Assembly (NCBI GenBank): GCA_026214975.1
Contig: CM047805.1
Coordinates: 185,505,333-185,569,332 of the forward strand
DNA: 64,000 bases
From: Gentiana macrophylla
Taxonomy: Eukaryota > Streptophyta > Magnoliopsida > Gentianales > Gentianaceae
Direction: 5' to 3'
Shown here: piece after piece, positions 1-63,136 of the stretch
Numbering within the stretch: the stretch's first letter is position 1
How the letters are laid out: each line of letters starts with the position of its first letter
Notes under the pieces: generated by a model
What the model was told of the DNA's origin: nothing
The model's database searches: none
The model's input: only the letters and a program-made list of their open reading frames with translations
Program-made: the position numbers and the translations under genes

Positions 1-2
1 GA

Positions 3-11957: not shown

Positions 11958-13099
11958 ATTAAAATTTGCGTAGAGAAAAAAAAGTAATAAATATTTTATT
12001 GATAATTTGAAATAAATTATAGGGGAAACTAGGGAGAAGAACAAAAACATTTCATCAATTAAGAAGAAGACATTTTTTCAAAATTTTTACATAAAGGACA
12101 AAAGTATTTTTCTAAAAAAAGGCGTATGTTTTATAAAAAAAAAAAAAAAAAAAAATACAACTCATTTTCTCTCTTATCCATTATTTTAAAACACTTGTAT
12201 CTTTCAATATACAACTCCAAATTTGAAAAAAAAAAAAATTACCAAATTTTTTATTTTTTTCATTTTCTTTATTTTGAGACCATATTCAACATATTCCAAC
12301 GTGATTTCAGAAAATCCGCTGTCAAAATTCACTATTATTCAAAATTCACTATCGATATTCAATGATTTTTGGGATTCACTGGGATATTCACTAAGTGAAT
12401 TTCGACAGTGAATTTTATGAAAAACGATGTAATGATATCGAACCAAGTCTCAAAACGAAGAGTATGAAAAAATAAAAATTTAACGAAATTTTTATCGCGT
12501 TTGGATCTCTAGATAAAAGATATGAATGTTTGAAAATGGAGGAGGAAGAGAAAAAAAAAAAGTTGCTAGGTACGCTGCTATTAGGCACGTTTTTTTGTTT
12601 ATTTTTTTATTTTATTTTTATTTTTTGTTTTGTCATTTTGTCTATAAAAATTATAGAATTCTTCTCTCAATAAAAAATATGTGGCTATCATGTTAGTCAA
12701 AAATATTCTAACAGCCGTCTTTATCCCTGATTCTCCTTAAATTATATTGTTTCTTATAAAAATTATATTTTGAGAGGAAAAAAAATAGTTTCCTTAAAAG
12801 TTAACCATGTAAAGTTGTCCATTAAAAAAAATGAAAGAATAGTCCAAAAGAGGCCGGCAGATATGATAAATTTTATGAAGAGTTAGAGATAAGAACAGCT
12901 TTTGAAACATTTTTTTTGAGTAAAAACAAGACAGGCATATATTTTTTAGGGTTAATTCGCCCAAAAGTCTGACTTTTTGAGCAATGGCCAGTGGGGCGAA
13001 AATGAATGTGTTGAACATAAGGACACATTTTATTCGAACTGCAATTTTTACCTCTTTTTAGATAAAACATCCAAGACTCCCTTCAGATATTTTGTTGTC

Positions 13100-13925
13100 A
13101 AATTATCCCCGTTTTGCGTCCTGTAAAGCCATATGTAAGATCGCTACACCGCATACATTTTCTCCCCTTCCGATGAAAACACCGGCGGCTAGATTCCTCA
13201 CCCCCATTTCCGGTATTCTTTCCTCCGATTTTCACTTTTTGTTCTATCTATTTTTCTTTAGGATAGGAGGGAGGTTGGCGTGTTTATTTCTTTGAAGAAA
13301 ATCATACTTATTGCTTTTCCCAAATACAGTTTAGCTCTTTGAACGGTGGAAGGAAAGCCATTCATTTTTCTGATAGCATTTTCATATAATCTGGAGAAGA
13401 AAAGAGACGAGGGACAACTATCGTAAAGTTTCTGTTTCAGGTAAATTATTCAGCTTCTTTTTTTTTTTTATCGTTTTCTTCTAACGAGACTTTTTTCTTC
13501 GTATTTTTCGTGAAATTGATGTAGATTTGGTTCTGCTTTTATCTATTTTGAAGAAAAAAAAGTTATTGATTCAGATTATAGATTTTTAATTCTAGTGAAA
13601 TTCAAGAAGAAATCTTGAACAAATGCTCATTAATTTCAGGAATAAAGAGAAAGTGGAGAAGTTAATTGACGATTTAATTATTTCTTGCATTAGAAATTAC
13701 AGTGTTTAGCTTTTCTATCACTGGTGTCTTGATTCTTGTGGAGTTTCTGTTCCTAATCTGCCAAGCGCCCCTGTTTTTTCATGTTAATTTCATGTTTTCA
13801 TGTTTCTGTGAATTCCTGAGCTTATTTTTCGACTTGCAGCAAATGATGAAGCAAGACATTGGGGAACTGATGGGAGTTAGCAGCCGTATGCATTTTCATA
13901 GGGGCCATTTAAAAGTTGTGTAGGT
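13100..13925 (+). pseudogene. Captured 5' gene fragment in M (unknown gene)
   Basis: A GC-richer leader precedes an ATG at 13173 followed by MKTPAARFLTPISGILSSDF. A splice-donor-like TTTCAG/GTAAATT lies near 13440 and an acceptor-like CTTGCAG/CAAATGATGAAG near 13840, leading to QMMKQDIGELMGVSSRM. This looks like the first exons, with UTR and introns, of a host gene picked up by the element. The family is not recognised. It could also be unrelated DNA with chance splice-like words. Confidence 0.35.
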
Positions 13926-13978
13926 TTCTTGCTTGCTTATAATTATGATGAAGATAAAAGAAGGTTATGTAGATTTAT

Positions 13979-14246
13979 GGCTCGTTTGGATTGATGGAAT
14001 GAAATGAAAATGTTGGAATAATGCAATGGAATTGAATGATATCATTCCATTACCTTGTTTGGTAGGCAATGGAACTCATTGTATGATTTATTTTTTCATT
14101 CCATTCTGACTATTCCATTGAATTTTGGATGGAATGAAAATCATATCCATTTTCATTCCGTTGGAATGAAATCATATTCCATTCCTCCGTTGCCAAAATG
14201 AAAAAAAACATTCCATTCCATTCCATTACCGCAATCCAAACACGCC
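13979..14246. mobile_element. MITE rich in ATTCCATTCC, inside M
   Basis: Ends GGCTCGTTTGGATTG and, on the other strand, GGCGTGTTTGGATTG form 15-bp imperfect TIRs. The interior is full of GGAATG / CATTCC words in both orientations, giving a strong foldback. The superfamily is uncertain because no clean TSD is seen. Confidence 0.65.
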
Positions 14247-14289
14247 ATTAGAGTTTCTCCGTTGTCAAACAAGCCAAATTGATATAATT

Positions 14290-15352
14290 AATGAAGTGAC
14301 ATTGATGTCACTGCATACATTAGACAATTAATGAAGTGACATTGATGTCACTGCAGATGTCACTGCATACATTAGACAACTAATGAAGTGACTTGATGTC
14401 ACTGTAGATGTCACTGCATACATTAGACAATTAATTAAGTGACATTGATGTCACTACATAAATCGATACAATAAGACTTCACTGCATACACCGATACAAT
14501 AAGACGTCACTGCATAAATCGACATAAGACGTCACTGTATAAATCGATACAATAAGACGTCACTGCATAAAGTAATACCGTAAGGCGTCACTGCATTAAT
14601 CGCTATAACAATACGTCAATGCATAACTCAATATCATATGATGTCTCTGCATTGCGGTGTCATTTCATCGTGGTGTCTTTGCAATGCGGTGTCTCTGCAT
14701 CGTCAAATGTTATAACATCGCGATGTCTCGCAATCTGGCGTCTGCGTTGTGGTGTCACTTCATCGTGGTGTCTACAATGCGGTGTCACTTCGTCGCGGTG
14801 TCTCGCATCACGATGTCTCTCGTGACGGTGGTGGTCACCGCGTCGCGGTGTCTCTGCGTCTGGGTTGGTCGGTCATCGTGGTGTCTCTGCGACGGAGGTG
14901 GTCATCAGACGAGGTGATCAATGGATCTGGCGTGGTCAATGCATCGTGGTGTCAACCGTTGGGCGTCTTTGCATCGCGGGTGGTCACTTCGTCGGCCAGA
15001 TCACTTCATCGGTGGTGTCTACAATGCGGTGTCTCTACATCGGGGGTGGTCACTGCATCGCGGTGTCTCTGCATCGTGGTGTCACTTCATTGCGGTGTCT
15101 CTGCATCACAGTGTCGCTTCATCGCCGTGTCTCTACATCGCCGTGTCTCTACATCGCCGTGTCACTTCATCGCCGTGTCTCTGCATCGCGATGGTCATCG
15201 CATCGGGCGTCGCGGTGGTCAATGCATCAGGATGGTCATTGCATCGAGGTGGTCAATGCATCAGGGTGGTCAATGCGTCGCGGTGGTCATTGAATCGCGG
15301 TGGTCAATGTATTGGGGGTGGTCATTGTATCGCGATGGTCAATACATCGGTT
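14290..15352. repeat. Composite minisatellite (TGTCACTGCAT type) of M
   Basis: Three zones follow one another. 14296-14460: units with GTGACATTGATGTCACTGCA. 14460-14640: about 28-32-bp units with CGATACAATAAGACGTCACT. 14640-15352: 16-17-bp units, first CCGTGTCTCTACATCG-like, then GGTGGTCAATGCATCG-like. The last zone is CpG-rich in an AT-rich background. Because the unit is short and stop-free, several long overlapping reading frames cross it; these are not genes. The same zones in the same order occur in elements L and R. Confidence 0.9.
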
Positions 15353-16245
15353 AAAAAAAACAAAAAAAAACCTGAACTGCGCCTGAAAAAAAAAAAACCT
15401 GAACAACGCCTGAAAAAAAAAACAAACAAACAAACAAACTGCAACAACGCCTCTTCTCCCTTTTTTTTATTTCTTTTCATTAAGGGTATTTGAGTCTATC
15501 TATCTAATTTGTGTCCCTATAAGTCCAACAGATTCCTTTTTGTTCTTATAAGTCCAATAAGTCCGTTTTGTGTCCTTTTGGGTCTTTGGCCCTATTTTTT
15601 TATTGAAAGAAAGATAAATTCTATAATTTTTATAGCCATAAGGACACTTAAAAAATAAAATTGCGCGGATGTTGCTCCACGGTACTTGGGACCTTTTTTT
15701 GTTTTTTCTCTTTTCTCCCCGATTTTTAAACACGCATATCTTTTGATTTAGATCTCCAAACGTGATGAAAATTTCACTGAATTTTTTACTTTTTGATGTT
15801 CTTTGTTTTGAGACTTGGTTCGATATCATTACACCGTCTCTCGTGAAATTCACTGTCAACATTTACTCAATGAATCTCCCCAGTAAATCTCAAAAATCAA
15901 TGAATATCGATAGTGGATTTCGAACAATAGTGAATTTCGATAGAGAATTTTTTTGAAATCACGTCGGAATATGTTGAATGTTGTCTTAAAATAAAGAGCA
16001 CGAAAAAATAAAAATTTGGTGAAAGAATTTTCAAATTTAGAGTTCTAGATTGAAAGATATGAGTGTTCTTCCAAGTGTTTTAAAATAATGGATAAGAGAG
16101 AAATTGTGTTGAGTTTTTTTTTATAAAAATATATGCTCCAGAAAATATATAAAAAAAATAGTTTTTTCTTTTATGCAAAAGTTTCAAAAAGCCGTCATTC
16201 TCTCTAATTGATGAAATGTTGATGTCTTTCTCTCTCATTCCCCCT

Positions 16246-16551
16246 AAATTTTATTGTGGTCGGTGACCACCAAACTCAATATTGCATAGAAAAATGATTA
16301 TTCCACAACAAATATGCACAACAAAGTGCCACTTTTCCACCATTGATTTTTGGGATCCATTTGAATCAATAGGTTCCACGTCATAATTAATGTTCCAAAA
16401 ATATGTTGTGGAACTTTGTTATGCACATTTGTTGTGGAATTATCACTATTCTATTGGATTCAATGGTTGAGAATTAACACACATCAACACAATCACCTAT
16501 GTGATGACATGTGTCCATTGAATTCAGTGGTTATTAACCACCATAAAATTT
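16246..16551. mobile_element. Foldback MITE
   Basis: Terminal inverted repeats of about 30 bp (AAATTTTATTGTGGTCGGTG versus AAATTTTATGGTGGTTAATA from the other strand). An inner inverted pair includes ATTCCACAACAAATATGCAC. The sequence is non-coding. Confidence 0.6.
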
Positions 16552-16564
16552 CTCGAAAGATATA

Positions 16565-16960
16565 TATACATACCCTGAGAAAATATAAAAATCAGGTCTA
16601 TATATCATTCCGTATTTATTTTTAGGTTGTGTTTGATTAATTTTTTTTATGCAGCACGTACAAAATTTTGAGAGAGCACATACAAATTTGCATAGACTCA
16701 ACACCATCCATATGCATTTCCCACGTTCTTCTCTCTCTTTTGTTTTTTAAATTTTTCTTTTTTTTGGTTAACTTAACTATTACCCCACGACCCATGTTCA
16801 ATTCCCACATGCCTTATGTTGAGTCCGTGTAAATTTACACATGCTCTTCTCAAATTTTACACATGTTCCCATAAAAGAAATGTCGCATCTGACATAACCT
16901 AAAAATAAATACGGAAGACTATATTGACCCGATTTTATATTTTCTTTACATACCATAGCA
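16565..16960. mobile_element. Foldback MITE with about 60-bp TIRs
   Basis: Left GAAAATATAAAAATCAGGTC ... CCGTATTTATTTTTAGGTT pairs with the right end read on the other strand. The inner arms (GAGAGAGCACATACAAATTT / GAGAAGAGCATGTGTAAATT) also pair, so nearly the whole element is one imperfect hairpin. Confidence 0.6.
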
Positions 16961-17104
16961 AAAGCACGCGCCCCACACCTGTTTAGTTAAATTGGTATTA
17001 TTAAAATACAAACAACAATGCCCTCAAAAAATAGAAAAAATAAAAAAACAACACTATGTTTTAACATTACACGCATATTATTAAGTATGTATTCATAATA
17101 TATA

Positions 17105-17412
17105 CTCTCTCCGTTCCGAAATAACTGAGACAGTTGTCAAAAAAATTTGTTTCGAAATAACTAAGGCAATATACATTTCAATGGAATATTTAATATATTA
17201 TTCCCATTTTACCCTTCTTTTTAATTTTTTCTGCCGGTTCATTATTCCCACTATACACTAATTTTGCACCTCTTTGTTTTCTTTTCTTTTTATTTTCCTA
17301 AAGTTAGTTAAGGGGTATTTTAGTTTATATTACATGAAAATCAATACAATAAATTACTTTCTTAATCTGTGTGCTTTTGGCAACTGCCTCAGATATTTCG
17401 GAACGTAGGGAG
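17105..17412. mobile_element. Stowaway MITE
   Basis: TIRs CTCTCTCCGTTCCGAAATAA / CTCCCTACGTTCCGAAATAT with the characteristic GAGACAGTTG / GAGGCAGTTG next to them, and TA on both sides (17103-17104, 17413-17414). This is the commonest MITE type in the window. Confidence 0.85.
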
Positions 17413-17423
17413 TATTTGAAATA

Positions 17424-17685
17424 CCCTTTCCGTTCTAATCCGATGCATTTCTCAAAATCACGCATATTAAAAATATGAGTTAATGCATAATAACTAAAAA
17501 ATACTTGAATATAATTAATGTAACCTTTTTAATTAAAAAAAAACCTATTTTCTTATATCTCCTAATGTAATGAATAAAAGTAAATCAAGTAAAAAGACCA
17601 TAAATGTCGTTTTGGGAATGATATTGCCTCAATAAATAGAACAAAACATTTTGACAACTGGATTAGTTATTTTGAAACGGATGAG
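17424..17685. mobile_element. Second Stowaway-like MITE, adjacent
   Basis: Left end CCCTTTCCGTTCTAATCCGA and right end (other strand) CTCATCCGTTTCAAAATAAC, with TA flanks. It lies about 10 bp from the previous MITE. Confidence 0.6.
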
Positions 17686-17699
17686 TAAAATATGCATTG

Positions 17700-18367
17700 A
17701 ACCACAAGTTTCAAACTTTAACAAATTAGGTCTGGCTGTGCTACTTGACGAATAACGAATTCGGTAAATACTTAGGCTAATCGTAATTGCTTGGCCTAAA
17801 ATGGTTAACTCAGGTTACGAAACACATTATTTCTCAACCTTGTATCTTAATAATCTTTCTCTCAGTCTTTCAATGTGGGATATTATATTCTCTCCCTCTT
17901 TAAAGAACCGGCGTCATCACCATGACCCTACCAAAGGTAGACAGAGGTGGCCTCTGCCATCTGTAATGGTGTGGCAATAAGATCCATCTGGTAGTCGGCT
18001 CTGATCACCCGTACATGTGAACACCATAGCATGATTCTTCTACATGCCCGTATACCAGTTGACAGCCCTAGGAGCTTGCACCATCGATCTCTTTCCATGC
18101 ATATCTCTAAACATTCACTTATGAGTCACCATGAATGTCTAACCCACTGGCTACACCCGAACCTGCATGAAAAGTGGTAGGTCCTGGGGTCCCTCGAACA
18201 AATTCGGAAGAAGACCCTGCTGAAACTGAGATGAATGCCTATTGCCGATAGACAGAGGAACCTAAAGGTGGTGGAGGTGGAGGAACCTGGTATTGTGATA
18301 TTGCTGCTTCAGATCATCATAAACATTATGGCATTTCATTTTAGAGTTTTCCAATCATGTTTCTAAG
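17700..18367. other. Probable LTR-element debris, no gene
   Basis: Contains CAATGTGGGATATTATATT near 17873, related to the fragment at 8560-8995, and a moderate-GC segment without an open frame. Superfamily and limits were not determined. Confidence 0.3.
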
Positions 18368-18693
18368 CAGTGGCGGAACCAGGAAAAATTTCCGGGGTGG
18401 TCTTGGTATATAAACTGCAAAGCTAAAAAAAATCTGGGAAAAAAAATAAAAAATTTTGGTAGTGGGATTTGAACTTACAACCTAGAATTAGGTAGACTTA
18501 AAAGGGTTTGTTCTTAAACCACTAGGATATATGGTCTTTTGTTCAAGAAAAAGATAAATAACATACTAATATTAACACTACTACTACAATAATAAAAATT
18601 TGGGGGGGGCTTGGGTCCATATGGGGGGGGGGGGGCTTGTGACCATTTGGGGGGGCTTGAGACCACCCCGGGCGTAGGGTGGGTCCGCCCCTG
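18368..18693. mobile_element. Non-autonomous hAT element (326 bp)
   Basis: Ends CAGTGGCGGAACC and, on the other strand, CAGGGGCGGACCC. Both sides carry the 8-bp duplication TTTCTAAG (18360-18367 and 18694-18701), diagnostic of hAT. The interior, read on -, holds TAGTGGTTTAAG and GTTCAAATCCCACTACC, resembling A and B boxes of a tRNA-derived SINE. Runs of G follow near 18601-18655. Confidence 0.85.
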
Positions 18694-19112
18694 TTTCTAA
18701 GTAAGTTCGTTTTTCTTTTTTTTCTTTTTGTGACAAAATTTTAAAACCCGTGATAGGTATTTTGTTAATTTTTGGATGTCTTACACGTCGTTTTTTGGTA
18801 TGATTATAATGCAGATCGTGGATTTGAAGTTTATATTGAAGTAGAGAGTGTAAGTGATATAAAGATTGTAATAACCGTGCTCCGGATCGTCATAAGCAGG
18901 ATGTCATCATTTTATTATGTGATTTTGCTTTGTAAGTTCGTATTTTCATGTTAACAAATTACATGTCGAGATATCCTTTTGTTTTTTGCTTAAATCCCAG
19001 TGTGTATCCATAATCCACCGATCCGACTAATCCCGAGTTCGGACCGGGTCCTGACAATATGTTTAAAGAAGTTGAGTCGTCCTGTGCATTATGCACGGGT
19101 TTTTAAAAATAA

Positions 19113-19116
<4 letters not shown>

Positions 19117-19184
<68 letters not shown>
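19117..19184. repeat. (TA)n microsatellite
   Basis: About 34 TA repeats, followed shortly by a C8 run. Confidence 0.95.
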
Positions 19185-19187
<3 letters not shown>

Positions 19188-19202
19188 ACTAACCCCCCCC
19201 AT

Positions 19203-19442
19203 CCAAACAAATTTTTTTTTTTACTATTGACCAAGATCTGAAAGACGTTAGTCGAAAAACTCTGATACTATAATAGAGATTGTATTGTATTGATTCAACT
19301 GAATGAAGAGTACAAATATATAGGGTTCAGTGACTTAGTCAACAAGTCACTACAAGATAAATACGACAATAATAATATTTAAAGAAAATAATAATATTCA
19401 AATTGTATTATCTAAATACTCAATCTTATCATTATCTCTAAC
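19203..19442 (-). mobile_element. Truncated Copia-type LTR with PBS-like site
   Basis: Read on -: TGTTAGAGATAATGATAAG at 19442, a TATA-like CCCTATATATTTG near 19325, then TATTATAGTATCAGAG near 19270. GTATCAGAG matches the core of the initiator-tRNA primer site usual in Copia. The internal part is lost after about 60 bp. Confidence 0.5.
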
Positions 19443-19669
19443 ACTATATATAATGACTCAGAAGGAAAAGAAAGAACACAAAACCTGCAGATATAAAAAT
19501 ATCCATAAAAAGGTAATTATTTTCTTCATCCATGTGGGTAAAATCCTTAAGAACAATTCAAATTATAAATAGATAATTAAGAAATATGACATGTTTTAAA
19601 ATAATTTGTAGAGGCAGAATGACAACTTCTTCAATATTTATAGATTAAAGAACCAAAAAATATTTTTAA

Positions 19670-19992
19670 AAAAATACGCTGTGGTTTTTGTTTTGGGGAG
19701 GAGGGGGGGTGTATTTTAGTTTTTTTTTTTCTTTCCACCTTTATTTTAGTTTCATATATTTTGATCTACATATTCAAACGTGATTGAAATTTCATCGATT
19801 TTTTTTTCATGCTCTTCGTTTTGAGATTCGATATCATTAAATCATTTTTCGTGAGATATACTGTAGAAATTCACCAAAAGAATCTCGTCAGTGAATCCCC
19901 AAAAATAGTGAATTTCGAAAATGGATTTTCGGAAATCACGTCGGAATATGGTGGATATAGTCTTAAAATAAAAAGAATGAAAAAATAAAAAA
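19670..19992. mobile_element. Element-O-like arm, left half (split by CACTA)
   Basis: Matches the right arm of element O (about 15715-16012), including CAAACGTGATTGAAATTTCA, GAGATTCGATATCATTAAAT and AATCACGTCGGAATATG. The match stops exactly at the CACTA terminus at 19993 and resumes after it at 39605 (AATTTGGTAAAAGAATATTC), ending near 39712. This shows the pre-insertion sequence. Confidence 0.8.
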
Positions 19993-20472
19993 CACTACTA
20001 GAATTTTCAATGTTTCCTACGGAAGAATTCGTCAGTAGTTCGTCAGAAAATCGTGTTTCCGACGAAATATTTGCTGTCAGAAAAATAGCCGTAGGAATCG
20101 CATTCTGACGAAATTTCCGACAAATTTAGTGACAAAATTTCCTACGAAAGTTACTGACAAATTTTCGACGAAGGTTGTGACAAAATTCCTACGAAAGTTA
20201 CTGACAAAAGTTCGACGAAAGTAGCGACAAAGTTCCGACGAACATTTCTGACACAGTTCCAACAAATCTTCGGACCAGTATTCCGACAAACTTCCGACGA
20301 TTTTTTATTAATTATTCTGACAAATTTCCGAAAAATGTTGTCACTGATTTGTCGGTAGCTTTCACCATTTCTGCAATTGAAAAATATTTTCCAACAGACT
20401 TCCGACGAAATTCATCACTACTTTGTCACAAATATGATTTTTGAAATAGCTAGTTTTTGTAAATTGTTTTTA

Positions 20473-22176
20473 GGGCCAATTATTTAAAAGGACTGATTTT
20501 CAACTTATTAGGGGTAATAGGACACTCCGAAATCTTATTTAGTTATAAGGACATTCTAATTTCAAGTGGGTAAAGAGGAAGAAGGAAAAAAAAAGAAGCA
20601 AGGGGAAAAAAAAAAAAAGTGCTGAAAGGGGGAAAAAAAAAAAAACTGAACGTTAGGTTGTTGTTTTTTTTTATATTATTTTTATTTATTTGTTTTTTTT
20701 TAATTCACCATATTCTAAATGTCATATATTTTGATCTAAAACTCGGATCATCATAATTTTTTCACTAAAATTCATATTTTTTTCGTCTTCTTTATTCTAA
20801 AATCAAATTTGATATTTTTCCGAATAAATTTCATAAAATCAATTATTTTCTTCATAAAAATCGACGTGACGTATTGATCACGGTCATGCATTGACCACCT
20901 ACCCGGATGCATTGGCCACCGGGATCCATTAACCACCCCGATGCATTCACCGCCGCGATTCATTGGCTACCATGATGTATTGACCGCCGCGATCCATTGG
21001 CAACCTTGATCAGTGACATCTCATTATAGCGATTTATGCAATGACGTCTCATTGTAGCGATTTATGCAGTGACTTCTTATTGTAGCGATCTATGCAGTGA
21101 TGTCTTATTGTATCGAATTATGCACTGACGTATTATTGTAATGATTTATGTAGTGACGTGTTATTGTAGCAATTTATGCATACCTTTGGTTGTAAAAATA
21201 TGCATTTAAACCAAAAAAAACAAAAGAAATACAATTATTTTACAAAGTTATCGAAAATTTAAACCAACACTAATCAAATAAACCAACATCAATCAAATAT
21301 TTAAAGATAACAAAGAAATAAAATTACTTTACAAAGTTATCAAATGTGTGTATCAAGTTGTATATGCGGTGACATCAATATCATTGCATCAGTTATCTAA
21401 TTGTAAATACAGTCATCAATGTCACTGCTTCAGACATCAATGTCACTGCATAAGTCATCAATGTCACTGCTTTAGACATCAATGTCACTGCAAAAGTCGT
21501 CAATGTCCCTGCATCAGACATCAATGTCACCGCGTAAGTCGTCAATGTCACCGCATAAGTCGCCATGTCCACTTGCGATAAAACTAACTGCAATCGCATC
21601 GATCGACTCTGCTCTTGTTTTGCATTTCTCCAAATGTGGAGCTTTTAATATGGATAAAGTACAAGTTTGGTGAAACTACAAAGACTCTTCACTATGACTC
21701 TTGTAATGGCTACACGCGTTGTTTGTGCCCTCACGATAATTGGATTTATTGTGGAATCCTCAATTCTTTAACACGATCTTGAATGTTTAGCTTAATGTCC
21801 TGCATTATTCATCAATGTCATCAGATCGGACATCACATGTCATCGCTTCGAAAATCAATGTCATTGCATAAGTCATCAATGTCACTGCTTCAGACATCAA
21901 TGTCACTGCATCTTAAAATAAAAAATAAAAAACATTAATGTCCACAGCGTTTTTTTTCTTTTTCTTTTTCCAGCGCTTCATTTTTTTTTTATTTTTTTCT
22001 TTTCTTTTCTTCCTTCCTTCCTTCCTTTTTCTTCTTTATCCACTTGAAATTAGAATGTCCTTATAACTGAATAAGTTTCCTTCTTAAAATTAGAATGTCC
22101 TTATAACTAAATAAGATTTCGGAGTGTCCTAAATGATCATTAATTCTCTAACGACGGCCTTATAACTAATTTGCAC
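20473..22176. mobile_element. MULE 'L' (1.7 kb), non-autonomous
   Basis: Ends GGGCCAATTATTT and, on the other strand, GTGCAAATTAGTT. A perfect 9-bp TSD TTGTTTTTA lies at 20464-20472 and 22177-22185. Inside, in reverse order relative to R: 16-17-bp units (about 20880-21000), 28-bp units with TCATTGTAGCGATTTATGCA (21010-21180), then units with CATCAATGTCACTGCA (21360-21560, 21790-21910). A roughly 200-bp non-repeat segment (21590-21800) is shared with R. Near-identical to R over its whole length by eye, but it lacks R's captured 1.5 kb. Confidence 0.85.
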
Positions 22177-22185
22177 TTGTTTTTA

Positions 22186-24478: not shown

Positions 24479-24596
24479 GTCTTCTCTACTCGGACTCTGA
24501 ACCAATTGACAAAAGTAACCGTGGTCACACTGATCGTTTCTGACGAGGAAATGCAAAAAGGTTATCTGACCTTTCCTGGCTCGGCTTTGTAGTTCA

Positions 24597-25424: not shown

Positions 25425-27472
25425 GTAGTTCATGCATTATCTTTCATGCCCAGATGCAATGAGGCTGCTCGAAAAACAAAAACAAAAACAAAAATTTAAT
25501 AATGATTATTCAATTGTATAACAGATTCTCAAATGATACTACGAATACAGAACATTATTTCTGAAAATGTTCTTCCAAACAACAAAATGATGGAAATGTT
25601 CTCAACCACAACACTTCCTGATAGTAGATCTTAAAAGCGTGAGCACACACACATAGAGAGATATCTATCATGATACAAAATATTTTGATTGGAAAGCTCT
25701 ACATTTTGAATTTTTAGACAAAAGGTTGATATTGGGTGCTGGATCAAACCACACTCAAAGGAAGGGCATCCACCCTTTTTTTTCAATAAGAACCTGGATA
25801 CCAAAACTACAGTAAGTATATATATATATATATATGATCAATTAAGTCACTTCATTCGGTTTTTACATTACTGATTCAACAGCATAGAGCCCCGGAACTA
25901 TTAATCTTACACACTGAAAGTCTGTAACTATTGTCTATACGATTATCATCATTCAAGAGAAAGCTGACATAAAACAAAGACACCCCCATGAGACAAGTAA
26001 AAGAGAATTCAATGTAAGAGTTAGTCACCTGCAGCTAATGAATTCATGTCACTTTTCTTGGGTTGTTCTGGCTCTCCGGAAGTCAACCCACACAATCAGA
26101 AATATCACTATGTGAATGTTGTTCAACAGATTACTCGGGAAGCAGAGCAGCAGGTCCCATTGCACTCTCTGCACCCAGCATGTACCAGTTAATGGAGGGA
26201 CTTGGATGCATATCAACTAAAGAATCAGTGCCGTCCGCATCAGAACCGAATAACTGGAAGCCAGGAATGATAACATACAATATTTAAGGAGTGTGCCAAT
26301 GAAAAACAGAGAACCTGTAAGTTTTAGACAACCAAAATTATCAAGAAGAGGGCTCTCAATTTGTTGCAGTCACGTATCACACCTATTATGAAAAAATAGT
26401 AGTAACTAACAACACGCTAGAAAAACGTCACAAGCTATGCATACAGAAATCCAAAGAATAGTGATAACATTTACAACACAATATAAAAATAATAATTACA
26501 AGATTTACACGCTAAAAAACAAACAACAAGGGTCAAAGAAAAGTAATGCTTGTGGTGGAGGTGATGAATGTCTGCAGCAATATAAACATAGTAGATATGA
26601 TGCGAACCACCAATTGTGTTGCTACAAGACAAATTACTTATGAAATTAGAACAATTGCAGCAATATAAACAAAGCCAATATGATTCAAACAACCAGAGTT
26701 GCCACAAGACATATTGCTTATGAAATTAGAGCAATTGCACAGAAAAAAACATTTGACCAATCATTAAAAGCATATGTCCTGGAACAAAATTATTCAACAA
26801 AGTAAAATAATTTCAAAGATTTTGAAGCTGTTAATGGAGTTAAAGCCTCTAAATAGCTGAATTGCTCACTGTATGCCTGATGGGTTTTCTTCAACGTTAT
26901 AATTTGCAACATTCTGTTCTTGTTGAAATAATGGGTTCAATTTGATCGATTAACCGAAAAAGCAACATTAATGACATGTTCTTTTTCTAAAAAAACTTTA
27001 CAAGACAATAAAATGAATGGAACTTAACCTGACAAAGACAAAGACACCATGTATAAATCCTACTTTTTCAAGCTAATGTTCATTAAAAAAAACTTTACGT
27101 TGTAATCTGTAGAGCCAAATATTACTTCATCCCTAATATCTCTTCATCTGCAGCATAACCTCATTTGTTTGGTGAAATGTAATCAAAGCCATAATTACAT
27201 GTGATAACTCATCAACAACAATGTTGCAAATTAACACTTATCACAATAAACAACTCACAACAAAATCAGCTAAATTTAATGAGTAGAATGACCTTTTTGT
27301 TGAACTCATTAATAAAACTCCAAATCAAATCCTGCCCAAGTCTACCCCAACTAGCTCCACTCAGAGCATCTCCAACCCATGGCAAATTCAACACCAAAAC
27401 AGCAAATAGGTGGAAAATCCATCTCCAACCCACATCAAATTCCACCATCAAATTGGTGGGGGAGCATATTTC

Positions 27473-27770
27473 TGTTGGAACTTTTGTTTGTTATTTCAGA
27501 TTATTTTGCTGTAATAAATCAGATAGTATGGATAAGTTCTCTCAAAAGACTTAGTCATACTTTTCTGTTTAGTCTTTCCTGTTTTGTAGGAGTAGTTGAG
27601 GTTTTGTAGGAGTAGTTGAGGTGTCCTCAATTTTAGCTCCACTTATTTCTGTTTCTGTTAATTTTTGGGATCATGCTGTACTTCTAAAACTCTATTTAAG
27701 GAGTGTGATGAATAAATGAGAAACCATCCAGCAAATTCATTGTTTCATATGTTAGCATAAAAGTTTATCA
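27473..27770 (+). repeat. Copia 5' LTR
   Basis: Contains a TATA-like ACTCTATTTAAGGAG near 27690 and two tandem copies of TTTTGTAGGAGTAGTTGAGG near 27590. Ends one base before the primer-binding site. Confidence 0.95.
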
Positions 27771-27815
27771 GTGGTATCGGAGCAAAATTCCACGAAATAA
27801 ACAGAAAACAAATCG

Positions 27816-30800
27816 ATGAATATGGCAACAGAAAACAATTTTATTCAAGCATCCATTCCACGTTTTGATGGTCACTATGATCATTGGAGCATGCTTATGG
27901 AGAATTTTCTGAGATCAAAAGAGTTCTGGTCAGTGATTGAATCAGGGATTCAACCACCAACAGGAGGTGCAATCACTGATGCACAAAAGAGTGAGTTTGA
28001 GGCTAGAAAACTCAAGGATCTAAAGGGGAAGAACTATCTATTCCAAGCTATAGATAGATCAATCTTGGAAACTATCCTATGCAAGGATACTTCCAAAGAT
28101 ATATGGGATTCAATGAAGCAGAAATATCAGGGCTCTTCCAGGGTAAAAAGAGCACAACTGCAGGCATTGAGGAGGGATTTTGAAATCCTACAAATGAAGG
28201 ATGGTGAGTCTGTCACACTTACTTTGGAAGAACTATGGAAATTGCCAACAAAATGAGGTGCTATGGTGATAAAATTCAGGATACAAGCATAGTTGAAAAG
28301 ATTCTGAGGACCATGCCACATGAATTCAACTATGTTGTATGTTCAATTGAGGAATCAAAGGACATAGATACATTATCTATAGATGAATTACAAAGTTCAC
28401 TATTAGTGCGTGAGCAAAAATGCACAGCATCTGCATCTCAAGAGCAAGCTTTGAAAGCAATCACTTTGGCTCCGAAAATGCCAAAGCCTGAGGGAAGAGG
28501 TAGAGCGGAGGCGAGGTAGAGGGATAAAAGCACAGAGAAAGCCAAGGTGGAATGTTTGAGATGCCATAAAATTGGACATTATGCATCAGAATGCTACACA
28601 GACTTTGCATCCATCAAAGAAAAGGGAGACAATGCTCATTTTGCTGAGGAAAGAGAGGAGCATGAAGAAGAATCAGAGACCTTGCTGATGGCAGTACATA
28701 ATGCAACCAAACCAGACCCTTCCATTTGGTATGTTGACTGTGGTTGCAGTAACCACATGACAGGCTGTAAGTCTCATTTCTCATCTCTCAATGAAAATTT
28801 TCAGTCTACTGTCAGTTTTGGAGATTCCTCAAGTGTCATGGTAAAAGGAAAATGAGATATTCAAATTAGAACCAAAAATGGAAACTTGGAAACCATCTCT
28901 AATGTTTTATATGTCCCTGCTTTGAAAAATAATCTTCTAAGTGTTGGTCAACTATTAGAAAAGGGGTATGAGGTCCTGTTTAAAGCAGGGAAATGTGAGA
29001 TAACAGATCCCATTAAGAGTTGTATTATTGCTGTTGTTCCTATAAACTCTAACAGGTTGTTTCCAATAAGGCTGGAAAACCTTCAGACCTGTCTGAAAGT
29101 TGAAATGAAAGACCCCACTTGGCTGTGGCATTTTAGATATGGCCACCTTAATTTTGGGGGGCTAAAAATGCTACAACAGAAGGAAATGGTAATTGGATTA
29201 CCACAAATCACTTGCAGGTCTCAAATCTGTGAAGAATGTGTAACTGGAAAACAGAATAGGGCATCTTTTCCAAAAGGAAAATCTTGGAGGGCAAAAGATG
29301 TGTTGGAATTAATCCACTCTGATATATGTGGTCCAATTAGTCCTATTTCTAATGGAGGTAAAAGATATATCCTTACTTTTACAGATGATTTTTCTAGAAA
29401 AACCTGGATATATTTTTTGCAAGAAAAATCAGAGACTTTCACTTGTTTCAAGAATTTTAAAGCTGCTGTTGAAAAAAGTGCAGGGAAAAGCATAAAAACT
29501 CTTAGAACTGATAGAGGAGGAGAGTTTTGTTCTCATGAGTTTCAGGATTTTTGCATTAAACATGGAATCAGAAGGGAATTGACTGCTGCATATACACCAC
29601 AACAAAATGGTGTCTCAGAAAGGAAAAACAGGACCATTCTTGATATGGTGAGAGCACTGATATCAAGAGGAGGAGTGCCAAGAACCTTTTGGCCAGAGGC
29701 TGTGAATTGGAGTGTTCATATCCTAAATAGGAGTCCTACCTCTGCTGTTCAAAATATGACTCCAGAAGAAGCCTGGAGTGGAAGAAAACCTAATGTTGAT
29801 CATTTCAGGATATTTGGATGCATTGCCTATGCTCACATTCCAGATCCAAAGAGAACTAAGTTGGATGCTAAATCTCAAAAATGCATCTTTCTTGGGGTAA
29901 GTGAAAATTCTAAAGCTTACAAATTATACAATCCTGTGACAAAACAATTGGTTATTAGCAGGGATGTTATTTTTGAAGAGGAGGAAACATGGAACTGGAA
30001 TGATCAATCAGGGTCAGTAATTACTGAGGAAATGGAGAATGGCAAGGCAGTTGGTGTTCAAGAATCTGCACACACAGAAGCATCCTCATCTGGTAATACT
30101 AATGACAGTGTCAGTGACACTGAAACTCAAACAACAGGTAACACTGATAACAGTGGCGGTGAAACTGAAACTCAAACAGCAGGAAGAATCAGAAAAAGGC
30201 CTGTGTGGATGGAAGATTATGAGGTAACTGGCTTAAGCAATTTCACTCATTTTGCTTTATTAACAGACTGTGATCCCACTACTTTTGAGAATGCCTCAAA
30301 AGAAGGAAAATGGAGGAAAGCAATGGATGAAGAGATCAAATCTATTGGAAGAAATAACACTTGGGAGCTGTGTGATCTTCCAGATGGACACAATACCATT
30401 GGTGTCAAATGGATTTTCAAAACCAAGTTAAACAAAGAAGGAGGAATAGACAAACACAAGGCCAGACTTGTGGCCAAGGGGTATAAACAGGAATATGGAG
30501 TTGATTATAGTGAGGTGTTTGCACCTGTGGCCAGACATGATACAATTAGGCTGATAGTTGCTTTGGCTGCTCAGAAATCTTGGCCTATCTATCAGCTTGA
30601 TGTAAAATCTGCTTTTTTACATGGAGAGATTCAGGAGCAAGTGTATGTTGATCAACCTCCTGGCTATGAAAAGAAAGGAAGTTTGGAAAAGGTGTATAGG
30701 CTGAAAAAGGCCTTGTATGGTCTTAAACAAGCTCAAAGAGCTTGATGCAAGCAGATTGAGGCTCATTTTATCAAAGAGGATTTGAAAAATGTCCCTATGA

Positions 30801-31826
30801 ACACACACTTTTCACTAAGATGGATGATGGAGGTAAAATACTTATGGTATGCATTTATGTGGATGATTTGATTTTCACAGGAAACTGTTCTGATATGTTT
30901 ACAAAGTTCAAACAGTCCATGATGGATGAGTTTGAAATGACTGATCTTGGTAAGATGAGTTATTTTCTTGGTATTGAAGTGACACAAAATGCAGATGGAA
31001 TTACTATGTGTCAGAAAAAATACACTCAAGAAATACTCAAAAGGTTTCAGATGGAGGATTGCAATGCTACAAACACACCGGCAGATGTTGGAACAAAGCT
31101 AAAGATTGATGAGGAGAGGAAGAAGGTGGACAATACTCTATTTAAACAAATAGTGGGCAGCCTCATGTATCTAACTGCCACTAGGCCAGATATTATGTAT
31201 GCAATCAGTGTTATTAGTAGATATATGGAAAATCCCACAGAGATTCATCTACTTGCAGCAAAAAGGATTTTCAGATATTTAAAGGGGACTATTGAATATG
31301 GATTATTCTTCAAATGTGGGGAAAAGACAGCTCTGGTTGGATATACAGATAGCAATTATGCAGGTGATCAAGATGACATGAAAAGTACTTCTGGTTATGT
31401 TTTCATGATAGGATCAACTGCAGTTTCATGGAGCTCCAAAAAACAGCCTATTGTCACTCTTTCAACTCTTGAAGGCGAGAATTTTGTAGTCTTTGCTTCT
31501 GTGCTTGTCAGGCTGTGTGGCTGAGGAACCTACTGGGAAGTTTGATTGTCTTACAGGGAGGAGCCACAACTATTTACTGTGATAATAGGTCTACAATCAT
31601 GCTAACTAAAAATCCAGTTTTGCATGGAAGGAGTAAACATATAGATGTTAGATTTCACTTTCTAAGGGATCTAACTAATGATAGAACATTGGAGCTGGTG
31701 CATTGCAGGACAGATGATCAAATTGCTGATATCATGACCAAACCAGTAAAGGTGGCAGCATTTCAGAAGTTGAGAGATTTACTTGGTGTTGTCGATTTGA
31801 ATAAACTGATGCTAGGCTCAGTTTAA
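27816..31826 (+). pseudogene. Copia gag-pol, disrupted
   Basis: The order gag - protease - integrase - RT - RNase H is typical of Copia. Seen: a gag head from 27816; zinc knuckle CLRCHKIGHYASEC near 28552; protease region WYVDCGCSNHM near 28730 (Asp-Cys-Gly where Asp-Ser/Thr-Gly is usual); GAG-pre-integrase His/Cys residues near 29130-29240; integrase D-D-E in HSDICGP, TDRGGEF and NGVSERKNR; RT with YQLDVKSAFLHGE and YVDDLIF; RNase H with YTDSNYAGD and STSGYVF; C-terminal HIDVRFHFLRD. Breaks: frame changes near 28250 and 28520, a stop near 28853, a lesion near 30740 between two RT blocks, and a frame change near 31510. This copy cannot encode its polyprotein; elements of this type move through an RNA intermediate. 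Confidence 0.93.
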
Positions 31827-31835
31827 GGGAGGGAT

Positions 31836-32133
31836 TGTTGGAACTTTTGTTTGTTATTTCAGATTATTTTGCTGTAATAAATCAGATAGTATGGATAAGT
31901 TCTCTCAAAAGACTTAGTCATACTTTTACATTTAGTCTTTCTGTTTTAGGAGAGTAGTTGAGGTTTTGTAGGAGTAGTTGAGGTGTCCTCAATTTTAGCT
32001 CCACTTATTTACATTTACTGTTAATTTTGGGATCATCTTTGTACTTCTAAAACTCTATTTAAGGAGTGTGATGAATAAATGAGAAACCATCCAGCAAATT
32101 CATTGTTTCATATGTTAGCATAAAAGTTTATCA
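31836..32133 (+). repeat. Copia 3' LTR
   Basis: Same length and ends as the 5' LTR. In two separate places the 5' LTR reads TTTCTGTTT where this one reads TTTACATTT, plus a few indels. Confidence 0.95.
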
Positions 32134-32928
32134 ATTTCACCATCAAATTTGCTGGGCAAATGGCGAGCCCGGCAACTACTATTCACCCTTTTTTCTTTTT
32201 TTCTTTTCCTTTGTGGAGATAAGTATTTGCTTTTTTTTAATTGAATTTTAGGAGGAATATTCTAAGAATATTCTTATTTGATGTAGAACCATTGGAGTTG
32301 ACGGATAAAATTTGATGTAAAAGTCCCGACAAATTGATGATTTGGTGTATTTTTTGCCGGAAGCCGTTGGAGATGCTCTCACCTAGCTACTACTAGTCAC
32401 TCACTCACTCACTCACATGTCAACATCAAAAAAATATAGCCCTCGACCCAATTCCAAGAAAATGTATGCTTCAAGTACAGAGAAAAGAAAGCAATCAAAA
32501 ACTCAGAACGAAAGGATTTAGAAATCGTTCCTACCTGGTTGCAGAATGAGAATGAAAAGCTTGCAAACCGCTGATTCACTTGTTGATCGGTGAAGGAGGA
32601 GTAAGGGTCAACGAAATCAGAAGCGGTTGTGGAGGGTGGAAGTCACGGCCATGGAGGGTGGAAGTGGCGGCTGGAGAAGAAGGTGAAATGAGAAAGCCCT
32701 AAGCCGATGTAGATGAAGTGAAGTCGATAAGAGGATTTATTTAAGTGCAAATTAGTTATAAGGCCGTCGTTAGAGAATTAATGATCATTTAGGACACTCC
32801 GAAATCTTATTTGGTTATAAGGACATTCTAATTTTAAGAAGGAAACTTATTTAGTTATAAGGACATTCTAATTTCAAGTGGATAAAGAAGAAGAAGGAAA
32901 GAAAGGAAGGAAGGAAGGAAAAAAAAGA

Positions 32929-33890
32929 GATTGTAGCATGCATTCATGATGAAAAGAACGTGACCGGTATTGTAAATCTGCTCGAAGTATCCAATCCAAC
33001 AATGACCAGCCCTTTTTGTATCTATGCTCTGCAAGTTATCGACATTGTTGCTCGTGCCACGCCTGTGTTTATCGATCATGAGAATGAGGAGGAGATGGAA
33101 TCTGATGAGAACAACTACAGCTCTATTCATAGAGCATTGAAACTCTTTGAAGAAGCAAGAAGTGATTACATTAGTGTCCATCTTTACACCTCAATAACGT
33201 TTAGAGGAAGCATGTACCAAGGCGTTTGTGAGCTTTCCTTGTAAAAAAGCTTCTCTTGTCATCATACCCTATGATGGAGAAAGAATGGTGAACCGGACGG
33301 CAAATGGCGGATGGGGTAATGCGTAAAGAGTTCGATCGATGAATGCTAATGTCTTGAAACACGCTCCTTGCTCGGTTGCTCTTTTGGTTGACATGGATCC
33401 ATCTCAATGAATCTTGTTCATGTTTCAATGAGGACTTCCCGTGTCACGTTCTTGTCCTATTTTGGGTGGGGCGCGATGCTTGGGAGGCACTTTCTTTCAC
33501 GGATAGAATGGTTGGAAATGAAAACTTGTCGCTTACATTAATCGATTTCTTTCACATAATGAAGAGGAGATGATAAGATGGAAAAGAAACTTGATGATGG
33601 AGTAGTTACATGGTTTTGGGTGAAAACGAAGCGAATGAGAGGGTAGTTTACGAGGAGGTAATAGTAGAAAACGGGAAGACACGGTATCTCGCTATCCGAG
33701 CTCTGGCGATGACAGTATAATCTACTCATCATGGGAAGAAAAAGCGGGATAAATCAAGTTATACTACAAGGGTTGTCAAATTGGAGTGAAAAACATGAGC
33801 TAGGGATAATTGGAGATTATATAATCTCCACGGATGTATCTTGATGAGCTTACATGGTAGTGTTTCAAACAAAGTGTTGAGAGGGGTGAA
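32929..33890 (+). pseudogene. Captured CHX (CPA2 cation/H+ antiporter) C-terminal domain
   Basis: Conceptual + frames follow the cytosolic C-terminal part of plant CHX proteins in order: IVACIHDEKNVTGIVNLLE near 32930; a SSIHRALKLFEEARSDYISV block; ELSL...KKASLVIIPYDGERM near 33235-33290; NANVLKHAPCSVALLVDMD near 33345-33400; GRDAWEALSFTDRMVGNENL near 33470; and GLSNWSEKHELGIIGDYIIS near 33765-33840. CHX proteins exchange K+ or Na+ for H+ in plasma or endomembranes. Only the soluble tail is present; no membrane segments were captured. Several frame changes and stops (for example at 33242) make it non-functional. Downstream DNA to about 34440 may be the donor's 3' flank. Confidence 0.8.
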
Positions 33891-34445
33891 AGAAACTTGC
33901 AAGTTTCTCGATCGGTGTAGATTTCGATCAGTACAAGTACACGTCTGATGAAATGTGTTTTAGGATAGAATTTAGAAACAGTTTTATTTTTTTGATGTAA
34001 ATTAGAAAGCTTAGGGGAATTGTGTAGTATGGGGGCAGTTTAGCAAGAAGATGGAGAAAAGTTCATTATTGCATTTCCATATATATGATTGCTACAGAAA
34101 GATAGCTGTGTTTTGGCAAGTGTACAAAGTTAATTTTTGTTGCTTAATTGATACGGACTCATAGTTGACAAACTAGGTGATGTTCATAATAATCATTTGG
34201 GTTTGATGCTTATCGTTTGGTTTACAATGTGGAGTGGTGATTTTTTTGCTATTATTTATATTCATTTCAGTTATTTTCATAAACACATTCTCTTATTATT
34301 ACTACAAAAGTAAAAGAAATTCAAAATAGGAAGTAAAAATTATTGGATTTGCAATTGATTTTTGGACCCGAAGATGGCACTGAGTAATTGTATTTACAGA
34401 ACATGAGAAAATAACGATGAAGATGTTGAAGGATAAGTAAGAGCC
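33891..34445. other. Non-repeat DNA of R after the CHX fragment
   Basis: Absent from sister element L. AT-rich, with no open frame of note. Probably the 3' UTR or flank of the captured CHX gene, but this is inference from position. Confidence 0.35.
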
Positions 34446-35637
34446 ATGAAATGTCTGAAGCAGTGACATTGATGTCTGATGCAGGGACATTGATGACTTA
34501 TGCAGTGACATTGATGTCTGATGCAGGGACATTGATGTCCGATGCAGTGACATTGATGAATGATGCAGGGACATTAAGCTAAACAAGATCGTCAAATGAT
34601 TCAAGATCGTGTTAAAGAATTGAGGGATTCCACAATGAATCCAATTATCAGGAGGACACAAACAACGTGTGGCCATTACAAGAGTCATAGTGAAGAGTCT
34701 TTGTAGTTTCACCAAACTTGTACTTATCCATATTAAAAGCTCCACATTTGGAGAAATGCAAAACAAGAGCGGTAGTGATCGATGCAATTAGGTTTTATGC
34801 GGTGACATTGACGACTTATGCAGCGTGACATTGATTTACATATCACGGTGACATTAATGTCGATCTGAGGACATTGATGACTTATCGCGATGACATTGAT
34901 ATCTCAAGCGATGATATTGATAAGCTGTATTTACAATTAGATAAGCGATGCAATGATATTTGATGTCACCGCATATACAACTTGATACACACATTTGATA
35001 ACTTTGTAAAGTAACTTTATTTCTTTGTTATCTTTAAATATTTGATTGATGTTGGTTTATTTGATTAGTGTTGGTTTAAATTTTCGATAACTTTGTAAAA
35101 TAACTTTAATTCTTTTTTTTTTGGTTTAAATGCATATTTTTACAACCAAATGTATGCATAAATTGTTACAATAACACGTCACTGCATAAATCGTTACAAT
35201 AACACGTCAGTGCATAATTCGATACAATAAGATATCACTGCATAGATCGCTACAATAAGAAGTCACTGCATAAATCGCTACAATGAGACGTCATTGCATA
35301 AATCGCTACAATGATATGTCACTGATCAAAGTTGTCAATGGATCGCGGCGGTCAATACATCATGGTAGCCAATGAATCGCGACGGTGAATGCATCGGGGT
35401 GGTTAATGGATCCCGGTGGCCAATGCATCCGGGTAGGTGGTCAATGCATGACGGTGATCAATACGTCACGTCGATTTTTATGAAGAAAAAAAATTGATTT
35501 TATGAAATTTATTCAGAAAAATATCAAATTTGATTTTAGAATAAAGAAGACGAAAAAATATGAATTTTAGTAAAAAAATTATGATGATCTGAGTTTTAGA
35601 TCAAAATATATGACCTTTAGAAATATGATGAATTTTA

Positions 35638-35680
<43 letters not shown>

Positions 35681-35860
35681 ACGCACACCCTAAGTTTTGT
35701 TTTGTTTTGTTTTTATTTATTTATTTATTACTTTGAGCACTTTTTTTTTCCTTCTTCCTCTTTATCCACTTGAAATTAGAATGTCCTTATAACTAAATAA
35801 GTTTGGAGTGTCCTATTACCCCTAATAAGTTGAAAACCAGTCCTTTTAAATAATTGGCCC

Positions 35861-36270
<410 letters not shown>

Positions 36271-60135: not shown

Positions 60136-63136
<3,001 letters not shown>

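What the first reader, a model, noticed from the sequence alone, without database searches (positions are those of the whole stretch)
12949..35860. A MULE family with a constant minisatellite cassette and exchangeable gene cargo
Three elements (M 12949-15592, L 20473-22176, R 32745-35860) share GGGCC-type termini and, next to that terminus, the same ordered arrays: GTGACATTGATGTC units, then 28-bp units with the TGTCACTGCAT/ACAATAAGAC words, then 16-17-bp GGTGGTCAATGCATCG units. The other half differs: R has a CHX antiporter tail, M has an unknown 5' exon region, L has almost nothing. L and R have 9-bp TSDs (9/9 and 8/9), M 8/9. Pack-MULEs with varied cargo are known; a conserved long satellite cassette linked to the cargo slot is, to my knowledge, not a standard description. 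The arrays may serve as transposase-binding, replication-slippage or capture-promoting DNA.
Basis: partly seen in the sequence, partly recalled or inferred. Interest (0 to 1): 0.75.

Follow-up and report, generated by a model that had tools for sequence, protein, structure and literature searches.

The report
Plant jumping genes sharing binding-site arrays
Three short plant jumping genes carry arrays built around one 10-letter DNA word that also fills the non-coding parts of a decayed jumping gene beside them encoding a transposase and a SUMO-protease-like protein, so the arrays are probably docking sites for a protein that keeps such elements from being silenced, a system known from Arabidopsis.

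Summary
The anatomy is real. M, L and R are non-autonomous Mutator-like elements with 9-bp target-site duplications; R also has an in-window empty-site copy. L and R are one subfamily (R = L plus about 1.5 kb holding a decayed CHX antiporter gene piece). M is more distant, sharing the array block and, weakly, one terminus. (1) The arrays (periods 16, 17, 21, 28, 51) share one 10-bp core, GTCACTGCAT: 14 exact copies in M+L+R, 0 in the 48.9 kb outside elements. (2) A decayed transposase-bearing MULE ("A", window 1 to ~7651, cut by the window edge, end related to L/R ends) has 8 exact copies, all non-coding by my exon reading: in introns of an Ulp1-like gene and between its two convergent genes. 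In separate word counts the core ranks 3, 2, 2 and 1 in A, M, L, R. This resembles VANC anti-silencing targets of Arabidopsis VANDAL MULEs, including Ulp1-bearing ones. I read the arrays as recognition sites of an element-encoded, VANC-like anti-silencing protein; "cassette with exchangeable cargo" rests on three copies. Binding and demethylation are inferred. The genome search did not complete. Verdict: new member of a known kind, in TIR-bearing pack-type MULEs.

The parts
1..7651 (.). Element A: decayed transposase-bearing MULE, left end beyond the window; right end near 7651
   Evidence: Transposase ORFs, Ulp1-like gene, right end related to L/R ends: scores 32-42 against shuffle maxima 17-21, 0 of 300 each
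3..2699 (+). Ulp1-like gene of A (coiled coil, then C48-peptidase-like domain about 2067-2699), several introns, frameshifts and stops; start beyond the window
   Evidence: Exons by eye from GT/AG signals; PF02902 E 5.4e-4, 20.3 bits against cut-off 20.7; SENP7 E 0.034 with Gln...Cys aligned
418..476 (+). 18-bp array with core GTCACTGCAT in an inferred intron of the Ulp1-like gene
1703..1787 (+). 16-bp array with core GTCACTGCAT in an inferred intron of the Ulp1-like gene
3103..3671 (.). A intergenic region between the two convergent genes: core copies and inverted core pairs (3474-3499, 3646-3671; a looser one at about 3274 by eye)
   Evidence: decayed tandem duplication, 65% over 490 columns
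3757..5983 (-). Mutator-type transposase gene of A (DBD_Tnp_Mut, MULE, SWIM), with internal stops
   Evidence: PF10551 E 1.7e-11, PF04434 E 5.9e-5, PF03108 E 5.4e-5 under cut-off; stops; 40% to a Rhododendron protein, E 5.7e-137
7557..7651 (-). Terminal-repeat relative of L/R ends, element extending to the left
12949..15592 (.). Element M, TSDs 12940-12948 and 15593-15601 (8/9)
   Evidence: its own two ends score 19, 0 of 300 shuffles
12990..13976 (+). M cargo candidate: exon-intron-like stretch (CAG|GTAAAT at about 13440, TTGCAG at about 13839), source gene not identified
   Evidence: one 32-residue piece tried, no Pfam hit
14304..15350 (+). M array block: 51-, 28-, 16-, 17-bp periods, core mostly on the + strand plus inverted pairs
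20473..22176 (-). Element L, TSDs 20464-20472 and 22177-22185 (9/9), no cargo
20886..21911 (.). L array block: 17-, 28-, 21-bp periods, with non-array spacers shared with R
32745..35860 (+). Element R, TSDs 32736-32744 and 35861-35869 (8/9)
32931..34450 (+). R cargo: frameshifted tail of a plant CHX cation/H+ antiporter gene, then presumed 3' flank
34451..35462 (.). R array block: 21-bp (core on - strand), spacers, then 28- and 17-bp (core on + strand)
36078..36173 (+). Paralogous empty site of R, one copy of TTTATTTTA

Best explanation
M, L and R are non-autonomous, pack-type Mutator-like elements (a host-gene piece is identified only in R) that depend on proteins of transposase-bearing relatives such as A. 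The arrays are dense recognition sites for a DNA-binding protein encoded by the autonomous element, most likely a VANC-type anti-silencing protein (candidate: the Ulp1-like gene product of an intact paralogue of A). It would bind GTCACTGCAT, singly or as inverted pairs, across non-coding parts of every family member and strip silencing marks, so that the autonomous copy is transcribed and cargo-bearing copies are kept open for transposition. Array periods change by slippage while the core is kept because the protein reads the core. Shown: the elements, the shared core, its near-restriction to these four elements in this window, its non-coding placement in A, the transposase gene and an Ulp1-like gene. 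Inferred: exon limits, binding, which protein binds, demethylation, effect on mobility.
For: Core exact copies: A 8, M 7, L 3, R 4, other 48,886 bases 0; at up to 1 mismatch 16, 27, 16, 14 against 1; shuffle means there 0.09-0.52 in the elements and 2.3 in the rest. In a count of four-letter 10-mers in each element alone, GTCACTGCAT ranks 3 in A (ranks 1 and 2 are the same word shifted), 2 in M and L, 1 in R. In A 15 of 16 copies (up to 1 mismatch) and 8 of 8 exact ones are non-coding, p 2e-4 against base share. Inverted pair ATGCAGTGACATNNATGTCACTGCAT: 6 matches at up to 3 mismatches (A 2, M 3, L 1), 0 in 100 shuffles; the pattern was written after seeing the pairs. With arrays phased without regard to the core, core positions vary less than spacers in 12 of 13 arrays (all 13: 125/804 against 191/896, p 0.003; the eight without indels 31/427 against 59/475, p 0.010); units and the L/R arrays are not independent. 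The A end is related to L/R ends. A has transposase and Ulp1-like genes in opposite orientation, as in KI-MULEs (PMC2528002, passage). VANC21 binds a 9-bp motif packed in tandem repeats in introns, intergenic and terminal non-coding DNA of its own family (PMC5735166, parts 1-3 of 6); Ulp1-bearing VANDALs behave likewise according to a review (PMC13317346, passages).
Against: No direct evidence of binding. The Ulp1 match is just under the curated cut-off, and no relative of the Ulp1-like protein was found; its N-terminal part, where DUF1985 would lie, is outside the window. No core copy with up to 1 mismatch lies upstream of the A transposase, whereas VANDAL21 has motifs there. M/L/R arrays gave no match to A's arrays at E 1e-5, so the core alone is shared. 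At two mismatches the rest of the window also has a small excess (46 against a shuffle mean of 31.7, largest of 15 shuffles 38), unexplained. No common 10.5-bp phase (mean cosine A -0.57, M -0.32, L 0.50, R 0.27). Core-over-spacer conservation is slight in the 21-bp arrays and in M16 and M17 and reversed in M51. In M the top-ranked word is another one (CATCGCGGTG), in L a variant (AATGTCACCG). One host, one window, four elements.
Confidence: 0.6

Rival explanations
1. The arrays are binding sites of the transposase itself (or an accessory transposition protein), helping synapsis and cutting, as subterminal repeats do in CACTA or hAT elements (own knowledge).
For: Dense repeats inside all three non-autonomous copies; inverted core pairs suit a dimer; in M and R the block lies on the GGGCC side, in L it fills most of the element.
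Against: In A the core is far from the one visible end, inside introns and between genes, and absent (up to 1 mismatch) from the 2.8 kb next to that end, part of which is coding. The block starts 0.25-0.4 kb inside the GGGCC end.
Confidence: 0.2
2. The arrays are passive minisatellites inherited from a common ancestor and reshaped by replication slippage, without function.
For: L and R are close relatives and the M array block is homologous (28-bp consensus 27/28); M differs from L and R in period (51 against 21) and copy number; the 21-bp, M16, M17 and M51 arrays show little or no core constraint.
Against: A carries the same core with different spacers and periods, in non-coding DNA; core varies less than spacer in 12 of 13 arrays; inverted pairs are shared by A, M and L.
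Confidence: 0.15
3. The array cassette promotes capture of host DNA into the neighbouring slot.
For: R and perhaps M carry foreign DNA next to the array block; one R cargo junction abuts the 21-bp array.
Against: Ordinary Pack-MULEs capture genes without such arrays (own knowledge); the core is also in a transposase-bearing element, in introns; two cargo copies at most; the other R cargo junction lies in a purine-rich stretch by the GTGC end.
Confidence: 0.03

Closest known systems
VANDAL MULEs with VANC target arrays (VANDAL21/Hiun, VANDAL6; Arabidopsis)
   Same: Short motif in dense tandem repeats in introns, intergenic and terminal non-coding DNA; repeat units differ between members (PMC5735166); a transposase with clear relatives beside a second gene without detectable ones.
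   Different: VANDALs are non-TIR MULEs (PMC13317346 and PMC6446971, passages), whereas L/R/A have related terminal repeats; the core GTCACTGCAT differs from YAGTATTAY and from AGTTGTCC/AGTTGTAC; here inverted pairs and orientation switches occur, whereas VANC21 motifs are described as same-orientation; a VANC protein is not shown.
KI-MULEs / Ulp1-bearing MULEs (Arabidopsis, melon, rice, grapevine)
   Same: Ulp1-like gene downstream of and in opposite orientation to mudrA; in grapevine also in TIR-MULEs (PMC2528002, passage).
   Different: The Ulp1 match is weak and decayed here; arrays are not part of that paper's text (tandem repeat, minisatellite and subterminal occur 0 times).
Pack-TYPE MULE 'PAC' of Arabidopsis Tsu-0 (PMC12312487, passage)
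   Same: Non-autonomous pack-type element with direct repeats said to be possible VANC6 targets.
   Different: Two direct repeats in one element, against long arrays with one core across three elements and a transposase-bearing neighbour here.
Pack-MULEs in general
   Same: TIRs, 9-bp TSD, captured host-gene fragment (R).
   Different: A long core-array block is not a part of the usual description (own knowledge).

Membership tests
Mutator-like element (MULE) | about 9-bp target-site duplication | tested here: met
   L 9/9, R 8/9 with empty site, M 8/9
Mutator-like element (MULE) | related terminal inverted repeats | tested here: met
   L's two ends score 52 (shuffle maximum 21), R's 44 (19), M's 19 (17)
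Mutator-like element (MULE) | Mutator-type transposase in an autonomous relative | tested here: met
   A: PF10551, PF00872, SWIM; 45 proteins found, the 42 named ones from plants. The link of A to L/R rests on the end sequence and the core; A itself is decayed
Pack-MULE | carries a host-gene fragment between TIRs | tested here: met
   R: CHX17_2nd E 2.5e-4, under cut-off 27 bits; M: not identified; L: none
VANDAL family | non-TIR MULE | tested here: not met
   L and R have related terminal repeats, and A's one visible end is related to them
VANDAL family | VANA-type transposase | not tested
   no tree with known VANA proteins was built
VANC anti-silencing target array | short motif in dense tandem repeats in non-coding DNA of the family, rare elsewhere | tested here: met
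   (this window only)
VANC anti-silencing target array | motif bound by an element-encoded protein that causes hypomethylation | not testable with these tools
   needs binding and methylation data
VANC protein | DUF1985 (with DUF287, or Ulp1 in some) | tested here: inconclusive
   Ulp1-like C-terminal part only, E 5.4e-4; no DUF1985 or DUF287 in the parts scanned; N-terminal part outside the window
KI-MULE (Ulp1-bearing) | Ulp1 domain gene in reverse orientation to mudrA | tested here: met
   Ulp1-like gene on +, transposase on -
KI-MULE (Ulp1-bearing) | non-TIR MULE | tested here: not met
   related terminal repeats; definition from PMC2528002 passage

The most novel reading that the evidence does not exclude
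One element-encoded anti-silencing protein serves MULEs with different termini (A/L/R and M) through a portable array cassette, so any captured gene fragment joined to the cassette gains trans-acting protection from silencing: an anti-silencing licence for gene-carrying transposons.
Probability: 0.2. Interest if true: 0.7.

Novelty: new member of a known kind. Interest (0 to 1): 0.42.

Why it matters
If right, it places VANC-like motif arrays in TIR-bearing, gene-carrying MULEs with a core different from the published VANC21 and VANC6 motifs, and gives a ready candidate motif and protein. It would also explain why gene-carrying copies keep long arrays: not to catch genes but to stay unsilenced.

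Tried and rejected
Own-genome copy count: the genome search was asked 15 times with the same request and never answered, so no genome-wide list exists. Viral contigs hold no exact triple-core array, expected and uninformative. Protein search with the Ulp1-like part gave nothing twice (where the length limits exclude long relatives, with longer allowed lengths). The core or its reverse complement stands in the text of 106 papers; by their titles none of the 20 listed is about MULEs. Common helical phase: not found. The core-versus-spacer test (p 9e-7) is inflated because units were picked by their core; (phase only, seven arrays in its sum, p 0.007) left out M16 and M17 and did not enter L17, R17, M28 and M51; enters all 13 arrays, and its numbers are the ones used. 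One search used 13 arrays that I picked from the TRF list; other arrays in the elements (A 5072-5129 and 6879-6917, M 14642-14802, the 19-bp array of L/R, poly-A/T and TIR-internal ones) were left out, so its result holds for that choice. needs no such choice, but words of fewer than four different letters or with under 5 matches were left out, and only the 150 most frequent of 282 words in A and of 192 in M were ranked (all 88 in L and 94 in R). A VANDAL proper was rejected because of terminal repeats.
Full report
What is there. The window is plant DNA (inferred). M (12949-15592), L (20473-22176) and R (32745-35860) are bounded by 9-bp duplications (L 9/9, R 8/9, M 8/9). For R the window also holds an unfilled duplicate of the target, 36078-36173, matching both flanks at 98% with one copy of the 9-mer, so R is an insertion beyond reasonable doubt. 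L and R are one subfamily: 87% over 1471 columns from the GGGCC end through the arrays, and 95% over 189 columns at the GTGC end. What R has in addition is about 1.5 kb, 32931-34450, whose reading frames give a broken plant CHX antiporter tail (Pfam CHX17_2nd E 2.5e-4, 21.8 bits against a cut-off of 27; the first stretch alone gave no CHX hit). L lacks it. Whether L lost it or R gained it cannot be told from two copies. M shares the array block in the same order, its 28-bp consensus differing from that of L and R at one position, and weakly the GGGCC end (score 21 to L, 1 of 300 shuffles, but only 15 to R, 31 of 300; a 63% match over 83 columns); its other end is unrelated. Its other half holds an exon-intron-like stretch of unknown source and what looks like a nested inverted-repeat element, 13977-14248.

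The shared word. The arrays have periods 16, 17, 21, 28 and 51, so at first they look like several satellites. Searching all 938 10-mers of 13 chosen arrays for the one that fits all best gives GTCACTGCAT (total mismatch 4 over 13 arrays; in a reduced set of nine arrays 3, against 14 to 19 in 12 sets of shuffled arrays). Scanned over the window it has 22 exact copies: 8 in the stretch 1-7650, 7 in M, 3 in L, 4 in R and none in the other 48,886 bases; with up to one mismatch 16, 27, 16, 14 and 1. At two mismatches the rest has 46 against a shuffle mean of 31.7 (largest of 15 shuffles 38), a small excess that I cannot explain, so the contrast holds for close matches. Because the word was first picked from M, L and R, I asked each element separately which four-letter 10-mer is most over-represented against the rest of the window: in A CTGTCACTGC, TGTCACTGCA and GTCACTGCAT are ranks 1 to 3; in M, L and R GTCACTGCAT is rank 2, 2 and 1, rank 1 being CATCGCGGTG in M and AATGTCACCG in L.

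The neighbour that the finding left out. Stretch 1-7651 is a decayed transposase-bearing MULE, cut by the left window edge. On the minus strand, 3757-5983, lie Mutator transposase domains (PF10551 E 1.7e-11, PF00872, SWIM, and PF03108 just under its cut-off) with stops. One search found 45 relatives (only the 7997 candidates sharing most words were scored), 42 with names, all of plants; the best are from Rhododendron at 40% over nearly the whole query, others from Liquidambar, Prunus and Camellia. On the plus strand, to 2699, lies a gene with a coiled coil and a C-terminal part that resembles Ulp1 peptidases (PF02902 E 5.4e-4, 20.3 bits against 20.7; SENP7 E 0.034, aligned over the Gln...Cys motif). 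The right end of A, 7557-7651, is related to both L/R ends (scores 32-42, shuffle maxima 17-21, 0 of 300 each). In A the core (up to 1 mismatch) sits in inferred introns of the Ulp1-like gene (418-476, 1703-1787, 2345), between the two convergent genes (2859-3671) and in an inferred transposase intron (4853): 15 of 16 copies non-coding, the other at 1069 in an exon, all 8 exact ones non-coding (exon limits are my reading of splice sites). Inverted pairs of the core, 16 bp apart, occur in A (2), M (3) and L (1) at up to 3 mismatches and nowhere in 100 shuffles (the pattern was written after one search showed the pairs); R has one with a 17-bp step.

How it probably works. VANC21 of the Arabidopsis VANDAL21 MULE binds YAGTATTAY; the motif is dense in tandem repeats in introns, intergenic and terminal non-coding DNA of its own family, repeat units differ between relatives, and binding goes with loss of DNA methylation; VANC6 has other motifs (AGTTGTCC, AGTTGTAC), and these also occur in an unrelated element that responds to VANC6 (PMC5735166, parts 1-3 of 6 read). 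A 2026 review states that Ulp1-carrying VANDALs (KIU) act in the same way on each other, citing Sasaki 2022 (PMC13317346, passages). Sasaki 2022 itself is not held; from memory it reports gain and loss of DUF1985, DUF287 and Ulp1 domains in eudicots, a role of motif density and helical periodicity, and anti-silencing of non-autonomous copies. Grapevine has TIR-MULEs with Ulp1 genes in both orientations (PMC2528002, passage). The placement and make-up of the arrays here match that system in several points: a transposase with clear relatives, a partner gene whose relatives the search could not find, a short core nearly confined to non-coding DNA, and non-autonomous copies loaded with the core. 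I therefore take the arrays as docking sites of an element-encoded VANC-like protein (0.6). Transposase binding (0.2) and passive descent with slippage (0.15) remain.

What speaks against it. Nothing here shows binding. The Ulp1 match is borderline and the expected N-terminal domain is off the window. No close core copy lies in the roughly 2.8 kb at A's right end, where VANDAL21 has motifs upstream of its transposase. With arrays phased without regard to the core, core positions vary less than spacers in 12 of 13 arrays (all 13: 15.5% against 21.3%, p 0.003; the eight without indels 7.3% against 12.4%, p 0.010), but the difference is slight in the 21-bp arrays, M16 and M17 and reversed in M51, and neither the units nor the L and R arrays are independent. 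Spacings show no common helical phase. VANC21 motifs are described as same-orientation, whereas here there are inverted pairs and orientation switches.

Novelty. The parts are known: MULEs, Pack-MULEs, Ulp1-bearing MULEs, VANC target arrays, and even a pack-type MULE with possible VANC6 repeats (PMC12312487, passage). New, as far as my searches show (in an open-access library only, with at most 20 titles seen of each list), are the core itself, long core arrays in TIR-bearing pack-type MULEs, and the same block in elements with different far ends. I file it as a new member of a known kind; the bolder reading, a portable anti-silencing licence for cargo elements, stays open at 0.2.

Noticed in passing
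36029-36200 and 32641-32744 + 35861-35955: R's target lies in a short local duplication flanked by (TA)n/(TAT)n tracts, which preserves an empty site 0.2-0.3 kb downstream of R.
   Followed up: partly
13977-14248: Nested inverted-repeat (MITE-like) sequence with ends GGCTCGTTTGGAT...ATCCAAACACGCC inside M.
   Followed up: no
27800-31826: Copia-type polyprotein ORFs (by eye) with a 20-bp repeat array of similar unit on each side (27581 and 31943).
   Followed up: no
47000-47497: 90-bp tandem array, 5.6 copies, 84% matches, upstream of a carboxylesterase-like gene at 47886 (Abhydrolase_3).
   Followed up: no
51392-52665: Tandem arrays of 35/68/75/103 bp and of 80/161 bp close to each other.
   Followed up: no
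3027-3729: The A intergenic region is itself a decayed long tandem duplication (65% over 490 columns at a shift of about 180 bp) carrying the core pairs.
   Followed up: partly
55425-57008 and 60133-61044: Host-type genes: Zein-binding domain protein and a protein kinase.
   Followed up: no
window outside A, M, L, R: Two-mismatch matches to the core are slightly more frequent than in shuffles (46 against mean 31.7, largest 38 of 15).
   Followed up: no
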